Source: Chloroflexota bacterium (GTDB taxonomy: Bacteria; Chloroflexota; Anaerolineae; J102). From it: a stretch of DNA of 33,032 nucleotides. Below are positions 4,013 through 6,015 of this stretch, in pieces (position 1 is the stretch's first letter; the number at the start of each line of letters is the position of its first letter). Location: NCBI GenBank assembly GCA_024224665.1, contig JAAENG010000399.1, forward strand, positions 1-33,032. Reading direction: 5' to 3'. The notes below the pieces were generated by a model. The model did not search any database, was not told the origin of the DNA, and was given only the letters and a program-made list of their open reading frames with translations. A program made the translations under genes and the position numbers.

Positions 4013-4045
4013 GTTTCTCTCCTTGTCTATGAAACGTTAGTGGAT

Positions 4046-4185
4046 GGGTGTGCGTCAAGATTTTGGAAGAACAATTCTGCTCTAGCCGGATCGCCAGATC
4101 CGGCGGGATTGCGCTACCAAGTGGCGGGTTTGGCAACCCGCCTGGAGCAGAGAAAGGGTGTTTCCAAAAAAAACGACGCACACCC
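4046..4185. mobile_element. Probable MITE / non-autonomous element (140 bp)
   Basis: Perfect 11-bp terminal inverted repeats GGGTGTGCGTC (4046-4056) / GACGCACACCC (4175-4185), inner TTTTGGAA similarity, flanked by TTAGTGGAT (4037-4045) and TTAGCGGAT (4186-4194). Two internal 8-bp-stem hairpins at 4085-4104 and 4123-4142. Confidence 0.7.
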
Positions 4186-4207
4186 TTAGCGGATCACTAC
4201 ATAGTAA

Positions 4208-4489
4208 ATGGGGCTATCATCTGCTAGAATAATCCTATGCTACATCAGACTTCCAATTTGCCGAAACTTCTTTCAGCTCATCGACGATGCTCCCCTTATG
4301 TTCAGAGGTCGGGTTGTGACCGAAGGTATTTCACTCTATTCGCGTGCTGATGATGAACGCGTCGCTTTCGAAACGCGTACACGTGCTTTGTACTTCGATT
4401 TCCTGCCAGCCGCCATGGCATTGCAGCGGGCTTTTATTGATGATGTCCTTGAACGAGGTATAGTGGGTAGACGCACAGAACGTAGATGA
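4208..4489 (+). pseudogene. C-terminal remnant of an MNT-type nucleotidyltransferase
   Basis: LMFRGRVVTEGISLYSRADDERVAFETRTRALYFDFLPAAMALQRAFIDDVLERG resembles the C-terminus of small nucleotidyltransferases; the GSxxxGxxxxxSDxD core is absent. Confidence 0.45.
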
Positions 4490-4503: not shown

Positions 4504-6015
4504 TCATAGCAGAATTGTAAATCGTTCCCGGATCTTAGCATCGACTTCGGGTGAGATCGGAGCGGGCCGGTGGGTGGCGAGGATGTGCTTCGCCTGGGTT
4601 CGAGCAGCTTCCCACATCGTCAGACCGCCCTTCTCTTCCCACTCACCTCGCCGTTGCCGGTCACCTGTATGGGGATAATAGTACTCGCTGTTCATCAGTT
4701 GCAGGCTCTGTTGGGTGCCGAGATAATGTCCCTCACCTCGACAGACTTCATCGATTAGCTCGACGGACAGGGTGCTGTCATTGACCTCGATGCCACGCAC
4801 CATACGCATGATCGAGCCGTTGATATCGTCATCGATCACGAACTGTTCATAGGCCACGGTCATCATTGATTCAAGGAAACCAGCCGAGTGGTGGATGTAG
4901 TTGGCGCCCGCCAATGCGGCCGCCAACCCTGTCATGCCCTTTTCATAGCCGGCCTGTATGTCGGGGATCTTGGAGTCGGTTAGCCCGGAAGAATTGTAGA
5001 CGGGCAGTTGATAGAATTGGCCAAGCTGGCAGACGGCTGCATGCATGAGAGCAAACTCGGGCGCCCCACCCACGAAATTGCCTGTGCGCATGTCGGAGAC
5101 CGAAGGCACATAACCCAGGATGATAGGGGCACCGGGCTTGACAAGTTGGGTGTATACAACACCCGACAACTCTTCGGCGTTGATCTGAACGAGTGTACCG
5201 GCCAGGGCAGCGGGACTGGTAGCGCCTGACTGGGGAGCGGATGACAGGAACACGGGAATATCCTGCCGTACGACCTCGGTCAACACCTCGACAGTTTCCG
5301 GGGCGAAACGCAGAGGACTCACGGTCCAACAGATGGTGGCCGAAATGATCGGGCGTTCCTTGAGCTTGTCCCCACCTCCTGCGATCATGCCAGCCATTTC
5401 TACCACATCACGGACGGATTGCACCGCATAGCAATTACCCGTTACATGTTTGGATGTGTTGGCAAGGCTGGCATAATAGGTGTTGAGGTCCAGATTCTCG
5501 CTGGGGACATCGCGGGCCACGCAGGCTCTGAGATAAAAGTGAATATTGTCCAGGACGTCTACAAGGCGCCCGATTTCAGCCACATCCGCCAGCGTGGACG
5601 GGCGAGGATGGCCGGTATCGAGATCAAGCACTTTTACCGCTGCACCTCCTGTGCCCATGTAAACGCGAGTGCCGCCCAAATGCATGTCATATTTTGGATC
5701 CCGGCCACAGAGCATGACTTCGTTTGGCGCGGATGCAAGGGCATGTTCTACCATGGCCTTGGAGATGTAGACCCGGTTGTTATCCTCATCAATGTGAGCC
5801 CCTGCATCCTTAAAGATCTCTCGACATTCTGAGGACATTACCTCGATGCCGGTTTGTTCAAGCACGGCCAGTGATGCTCGATGGATTTGCTTGACTTCCT
5901 CCTGACTCAAGGGCTTGTATTGTCCCCCTCGCAGACCCGGCAGCGGTTTAAACAAAGGCTCTTTTTTTTGATCCTCGCTATGTCGTCTACGGCTGTGTCG
6001 TCGTCGTCTACTCAT
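4504..6015 (-). CDS. MttB/COG5598-family methyltransferase (copy B), no internal amber codon
   Basis: 503 aa; GTGGAAVKVLDLDTG, SSAPQSGATSPAALAGTLVQ, LTDSKIPDIQAGYEKG, AGANYIHHSAGFLESMMTVAYEQFVIDDD; close paralog of 28100-29635. Confidence 0.92.
   Translation of the reverse strand: MSRRRRHSRRRHSEDQKKEPLFKPLPGLRGGQYKPLSQEEVKQIHRASLAVLEQTGIEVMSSECREIFKDAGAHIDEDNNRVYISKAMVEHALASAPNEVMLCGRDPKYDMHLGGTRVYMGTGGAAVKVLDLDTGHPRPSTLADVAEIGRLVDVLDNIHFYLRACVARDVPSENLDLNTYYASLANTSKHVTGNCYAVQSVRDVVEMAGMIAGGGDKLKERPIISATICWTVSPLRFAPETVEVLTEVVRQDIPVFLSSAPQSGATSPAALAGTLVQINAEELSGVVYTQLVKPGAPIILGYVPSVSDMRTGNFVGGAPEFALMHAAVCQLGQFYQLPVYNSSGLTDSKIPDIQAGYEKGMTGLAAALAGANYIHHSAGFLESMMTVAYEQFVIDDDINGSIMRMVRGIEVNDSTLSVELIDEVCRGEGHYLGTQQSLQLMNSEYYYPHTGDRQRRGEWEEKGGLTMWEAARTQAKHILATHRPAPISPEVDAKIRERFTILL

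What the first reader, a model, noticed from the sequence alone, without database searches (positions are those of the whole stretch)
4046..4185. 140-bp MITE with 9-bp near-identical target duplication and twin hairpins
Perfect 11-bp terminal repeats GGGTGTGCGTC/GACGCACACCC are flanked directly by TTAGTGGAT and TTAGCGGAT (8 of 9 identical). Inside are GCCGGATC-GCCA-GATCCGGC and GGCGGGTT-TGGC-AACCCGCC hairpins, resembling REP/BIME architecture inside a transposable unit. It has no coding capacity, so an IS would have to mobilise it in trans.
Basis: partly seen in the sequence, partly recalled or inferred. Interest (0 to 1): 0.6.

Follow-up and report, generated by a model that had tools for sequence, protein, structure and literature searches.

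The report
Promoter-seeking mini-transposon carrying REP-like hairpins
This 140-bp stretch is a real, multi-copy mini-transposon in a Chloroflexota genome: its ends are those of the ISKra4 transposon family, which inserts just upstream of gene promoters, and inside it carries a pair of REP-like DNA hairpins that belong to a different transposition system.

Summary
The element (4046-4185) has relatives in its own genome; in five elements with both ends the flanks match only in a 9-bp register (82% identity at 9 bp, 18-40% at other lengths). The ends, GGGTGTGCGTCAAGATTTTGG, belong to a class-wide MITE family (39 of 298 genomes, reversed-pattern control near zero; many copies with perfect 9-bp duplications). 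ISKra4-family insertion sequences in the class have ends of the same kind, and one in a relative has an identical 21-bp end. The family inserts with a sigma-A -35 box exactly 16 bp outside one end, the published specificity of the ISKra4 group. The two inner hairpins are a REP-like inverted pair: a GCTC tag at a fixed distance from a covarying hairpin, up to 158 units per genome in other families. In this genome the only exact unit outside a MITE flanks a REP-associated tyrosine transposase. So the element is an ISKra4-type MITE that has captured a REP-like pair. Not shown: movement, an ISKra4 transposase in this draft assembly, an empty site. It is a new variant of a known kind.

The parts
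4037..4045 (.). left copy of the 9-bp target duplication, TTAGTGGAT
   Evidence: 8/9 identical to the right copy, and only the 9-bp register matches across five elements.
4046..4066 (+). left terminal end GGGTGTGCGTCAAGATTTTGG (11 bp perfect inverse with the right end, then the TTTTGGAA arm)
   Evidence: the identical 21-mer ends an ISKra4-family IS in G065.
4079..4104 (+). REP-like unit 1: GCTC tag (4079-4082) plus hairpin with GGATCGCCAGATCC core (4088-4101)
   Evidence: GCTC at exactly this place in 79 of 88 distinct units of repeat-rich genomes.
4123..4148 (-). REP-like unit 2, inverted: hairpin GGCGGGTTTGGCAACCCGCC then GAGC tag (4145-4148)
   Evidence: inverted partner of unit 1 with the same GCCA/TGGC loop.
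4165..4185 (-). right terminal end, inverse of GGGTGTGCGTC (4175-4185), with the inner TTCCAAAA arm beside it
4186..4194 (.). right copy of the 9-bp target duplication, TTAGCGGAT
4202..4230 (+). candidate sigma-A promoter: -35 TAGTAA (4202-4207), 17 bp, -10 TAGAAT (4225-4230), 16 bp outside the right end
   Evidence: weak in this copy (3/6 and 5/6; not found by the stricter scan), but at the family's preferred position.

Best explanation
A non-autonomous transposable element (MITE) of the ISKra4 group, a branch of the prokaryotic Mutator-like DDE transposases. An ISKra4 transposase acting in trans recognises the GGGTGTGCGTCAAGATTTTGG ends, probably by way of a circular intermediate. It inserts the element 16 bp upstream of the -35 box of a sigma-A promoter and duplicates 9 bp. 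The inside is captured cargo: an inverted pair of GCTC-tagged REP-like hairpins of the kind that flanks RAYT genes. In this genome the hairpin pair has spread only with the ISKra4-type ends. Shown: the family, the duplication, the promoter spacing, the end shared with an ISKra4 IS in a relative, and the RAYT flanked by the same hairpin unit. Inferred: the actual movement, the circular form, and that a RAYT once moved the hairpin pair.
For: Copies. Duplication: 8, 8, 8, 7, 6 of 9 in five own elements; control 0-5; 15 of 27 end pairs perfect, 22 of 27 at 7 of 9 or better, in G133, G195, G243, G268, G183, G088. End type: ISKra4 IS in the class have ends such as GGGTGTGACTAAATCTGG with perfect 9-bp duplication; an ISKra4 transposase (210 bits, cut-off 205) lies between GGGTGTGCGTCAAGATTTTGG and an eroded second end in G065. 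Promoter spacing: score peak at offset 16 with z = 8.2 in own copies, 6.8 in G008/G002 and 8.6 in a further set of 71 ends; 7 of 17 own ends reach the threshold at exactly 16 against a shuffled mean of 0.05. Guerillot et al. 2014 (PMC3942029) give 16 bp, 8-9 bp duplications, and promoters at either end for near-perfect inverted ends in the ISKra4 group. Cargo; RAYT flanks.
Against: No ISKra4 transposase was found in the window's own assembly, a draft of 628 contigs, about 92% complete. The one IS with an identical end has an eroded second end and no duplication. The window's own promoter is weak. No empty site could be found.
Confidence: 0.87

Rival explanations
1. The whole element is a REP doublet (REPIN) mobilised by a RAYT; the outer arms are only an extended stem, and the 9-bp flanks are fortuitous.
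For: The core is a tagged inverted hairpin pair and a RAYT flanked by the same unit is present. Published REP dimers sit inside longer palindromes (PMC3733652).
Against: The same ends occur class-wide with quite different interiors and perfect 9-bp duplications, the promoter spacing follows the ends, and in this genome the RAYT has an in-frame stop.
Confidence: 0.05
2. A MITE, but mobilised by another Mutator-like family such as ISLre2 or IS256.
For: ISLre2 elements share the 16-bp promoter spacing (PMC3942029).
Against: No ISLre2 match in this genome and only a weak partial IS256 match. IS256 shows no promoter preference in PMC3942029. ISKra4 elements of the class have the matching GGGTGTG ends, one of them identical over 21 bp.
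Confidence: 0.06
3. A structured regulatory RNA or attenuator kept by selection, not a mobile element.
For: Very stable fold, covarying stems, lies between genes.
Against: No Rfam match over it, both orientations and unrelated loci, target duplications. Covariation is also expected of REP hairpins.
Confidence: 0.02

Closest known systems
ISKra4 group insertion sequences (Mutator-like p-MULT 4; Guerillot et al. 2014, PMC3942029)
   Same: GGG ends, near-perfect inverted repeats, 9-bp duplication, insertion 16 bp upstream of the -35 box.
   Different: No transposase gene; 140 bp instead of about 1.4-1.7 kb; carries palindromic cargo.
REP/BIME and REPIN doublets with RAYT (PMC3733652, PMC6006769)
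   Same: Inverted pair of short hairpins with a fixed tetranucleotide next to the foot; the same unit flanks a RAYT gene in this genome.
   Different: Tag is GCTC, not GTAG/GTGG or CGTC; in this genome it occurs only inside the MITE or beside the RAYT, in few copies.
Anabaena GTAG-15 dimers inside long palindromes and H. neapolitanus CGTC-1 dimers inside 41-bp palindromes (PMC3733652)
   Same: REP dimers nested in a longer inverted repeat.
   Different: That passage gives no transposase assignment, target duplication or promoter targeting.
Other bacterial MITEs (review PMC10969869)
   Same: Short, non-coding, inverted ends, intergenic.
   Different: The review does not mention ISKra4 or Mutator-type MITEs.

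Membership tests
ISKra4-type MITE | Terminal inverted repeats with GGG ends of the family type | tested here: met
   21/21 identity to one end of an ISKra4 IS.
ISKra4-type MITE | 8-9 bp target duplication | tested here: met
   9-bp register only, five own elements; many perfect in relatives.
ISKra4-type MITE | Insertion 15-17 bp upstream of a sigma-A -35 box | tested here: met
   Peak at 16 in three sets of ends; in the window copy itself the promoter is weak.
ISKra4-type MITE | Autonomous partner with the same ends | tested here: met
   In relative G065, with one end eroded.
ISKra4-type MITE | Autonomous partner in the same genome | tested here: inconclusive
   None in the draft assembly.
ISKra4-type MITE | Demonstrated movement or empty site | not testable with these tools
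   No same-genus genome held; one search found no relative of the neighbouring gene.
REP / REPIN (core only) | Hairpin with a fixed tetranucleotide at its foot | tested here: met
   GCTC at one fixed place in 79/88 units against 0/21 single hits in repeat-poor genomes; stems covary.
REP / REPIN (core only) | Unit flanks a RAYT gene | tested here: met
   G000:C570, both sides, inverted; the protein matches NF047646 at 56 bits, below its cut-off of 80.
GTAG or CGTC REP super-families | Tag GTAG/GTGG or CGTC | tested here: not met
   The tag is GCTC.

The most novel reading that the evidence does not exclude
In Anaerolineae-type Chloroflexota one promoter-targeting ISKra4 end set acts as a general vehicle that picks up different palindromic modules, including GCTC-tagged REP pairs of a RAYT system with a tag outside the two known super-families. 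Two unrelated transposition chemistries (double-strand DDE and single-strand HUH) would then share one element and place ready-made hairpins a fixed distance upstream of promoters.
Probability: 0.55. Interest if true: 0.65.

Novelty: new variant of a known kind. Interest (0 to 1): 0.52.

Why it matters
It ties a hairpin-bearing MITE to a named transposase group by four independent marks (end sequence, duplication length, insertion distance from promoters, a partner IS in a relative). It shows REP-like hairpins travelling inside another transposon, and suggests a third REP tag class with its own RAYTs. Because the family places strong hairpins 16 bp upstream of promoters, its effect on transcription is directly testable.

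Tried and rejected
IS256 (Transposase_mut) as partner: only one weak partial match in the genome. ISLre2: none in this genome. A structured RNA family: no Rfam hit on the element. An intrinsic terminator: none found. Empty site through the neighbouring 180-aa gene: no relative in genome contigs. RAYT flanks in G036, G031, G039, G040 and G042: the Y1_Tnp genes examined there have no such hairpin nearby, so the RAYT that spread the pair in those genomes was not identified. Target duplications for the CTCAGTAGAT-ended doublets: only five cases, nothing clear. The exact end pattern in viral contigs: none. Literature: no paper found on ISKra4 MITEs or on this repeat in Chloroflexota; the library holds open-licence papers only.

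Full report
The element and the observation. The window is contig C399 of a 5.77-Mb draft genome in 628 contigs. Related records carrying the same ends are named Caldilineaceae bacterium and Chloroflexota bacterium, so the host is a Chloroflexota bacterium, probably of the Caldilinea group (inference). Every feature reported is at the stated place. The single strand folds into one long stem closed by the terminal repeats, with a second arm pair TTTTGGAA/TTCCAAAA, a closing stem CTGCTC/GAGCAG and two hairpins on top (-43.9 kcal/mol, z = -7.7).

It is a family. In the same genome there are relatives with both ends at C301:2246-2364, C555:11986-12104, C424:9286-9417 and C544:3176-3305, one-ended remains at C40 and C610, and a further element with the same ends but another interior at C251. 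The 22-bp end pattern gives 12 matches and its reversed control none.

Target duplication. For five own elements with both ends clear (C399, C301, C555, C424, C251), the 9 bases on the two sides agree at 8, 8, 8, 7 and 6 positions. Left and right flanks of different elements agree at 0-5. Mean identity is 0.82 at length 9 and 0.18-0.40 at every other length from 5 to 13. In relatives from other families (G133, G195, G243, G268, G183, G088), 22 of 27 end pairs agree at 7 or more of 9 positions and 15 agree at all nine.

Which transposase. ISKra4-family transposases are present in the class. Their insertion sequences have ends such as GGGTGTGACTAAATCTGG (22/22 inverted, perfect 9-bp duplication), GGGTCTATTTCAGTTTTG (perfect duplication) and GGGTGTAAGTCTGAAATA. 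The family's end pattern occurs in 39 of 298 genomes of the class, up to 98 times per genome, with five control matches in all. Among these, G065 has an ISKra4-family transposase (NF033572, 210 bits, cut-off 205) with the end GGGTGTGCGTCAAGATTTTGG, identical to the window's 21 bases, on one side; the end on the other side is eroded at the tip and no duplication is left. No such gene is in the window's own assembly.

Promoter targeting. The ISKra4 group is reported to insert with the -35 box about 16 bp from the end, at either end when the inverted repeats are nearly perfect, and to duplicate 8-9 bp (PMC3942029). I scored sigma-A-like promoters at every distance outside the ends. The mean score peaks at offset 16 in the window's own genome (z = 8.2), in G008/G002 (z = 6.8) and in 71 ends from other genomes that were not used to notice the pattern (z = 8.6). 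Examples are TTGACA-17-TATACT at C555 and TTGACA-17-TACACT at C424. In the window the matching site is TAGTAA-17-TAGAAT at 4202-4230, on the right side. It is weak, and a stricter scan does not report it.

The cargo. The inner hairpin core GGATYGYCARATCC occurs in 21 of 61 related genomes, 158 times in G036, 36 in G031, 34 in G040 and 28 in G042; the reversed control is zero everywhere. In the repeat-rich genomes the units often form inverted pairs GCTC-hairpin-spacer-hairpin-GAGC. The tetranucleotide GCTC sits at one fixed place in 79 of 88 distinct units and in none of 21 single hits from repeat-poor genomes. The five outer stem positions keep pairing through changes on both sides. These are hallmarks of REP sequences, but the tag is neither GTAG nor CGTC (PMC3733652, PMC6006769). 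In the window's genome the only exact copy of the hairpin outside a MITE lies beside a REP-associated tyrosine transposase, with an inverted, slightly divergent partner on the gene's other side; by my own reading of the translations this gene sits between trpB and trpA, and it has an in-frame stop. Several homologues of that RAYT elsewhere in the class are also flanked by GCTC-tagged hairpins of other sequence.

Ends and cargo are separable. The same ends enclose quite different palindromic interiors in G008, G133, G195 and G088. The same hairpin pair is found between other outer arms in G036, G031 and G039. So the window element is best read as an ISKra4-type MITE that captured a REP-like pair and multiplied with it. 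A tandem array in a Caldilineaceae genome, three copies separated by 9 bp, fits the circular intermediates described for these transposases, in which the ends are 6-10 bp apart (PMC3942029).

What is not shown. Movement, an empty site, the partner transposase in this genome, and the role of a RAYT in spreading the hairpin pair are inferences.

Noticed in passing
L229:4837-5605 (JAGNDO010000003.1, Caldilineaceae bacterium): Tandem array of three 253-bp elements with the same ends and another palindromic cargo, separated by 9 bp, as if from a circular intermediate.
   Followed up: partly
G000:C301:8341-8381 (L011): Two copies of the end sequence abut tail to tail, TCCAAAATCTTGACGCACAGCCTGTGCGCCAAGATTTTGGA; origin unclear.
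   Followed up: no
G000:C570 (L201:1375-2050): Decayed RAYT gene flanked by inverted REP-like units, apparently inserted between trpB and trpA.
   Followed up: partly
window 4884-4983 (-): Rfam PYLIS_3 match (49.1 bits) inside an mttB-type gene (4504-6015) that is open over 503 aa; more likely sequence kinship than a pyrrolysine signal.
   Followed up: no
G036 contigs, e.g. L142, L144, L146: 158 hairpin units in one 3.8-Mb genome, many as pairs with outer arms CTCAGTAGATGGAAAATCGCTC; their mobilising enzyme was not found.
   Followed up: partly
L041:5300-5420, L037 about 1700-1800, L040:1-160: Short tandem arrays (for example of the type CCGGTAGACCGGTAGG) near several elements or remains with these ends.
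   Followed up: no
window 4208-4489 (+): A 93-aa frame begins inside the candidate promoter just outside the element; no Pfam match for the part tested; possibly a gene fragment.
   Followed up: no
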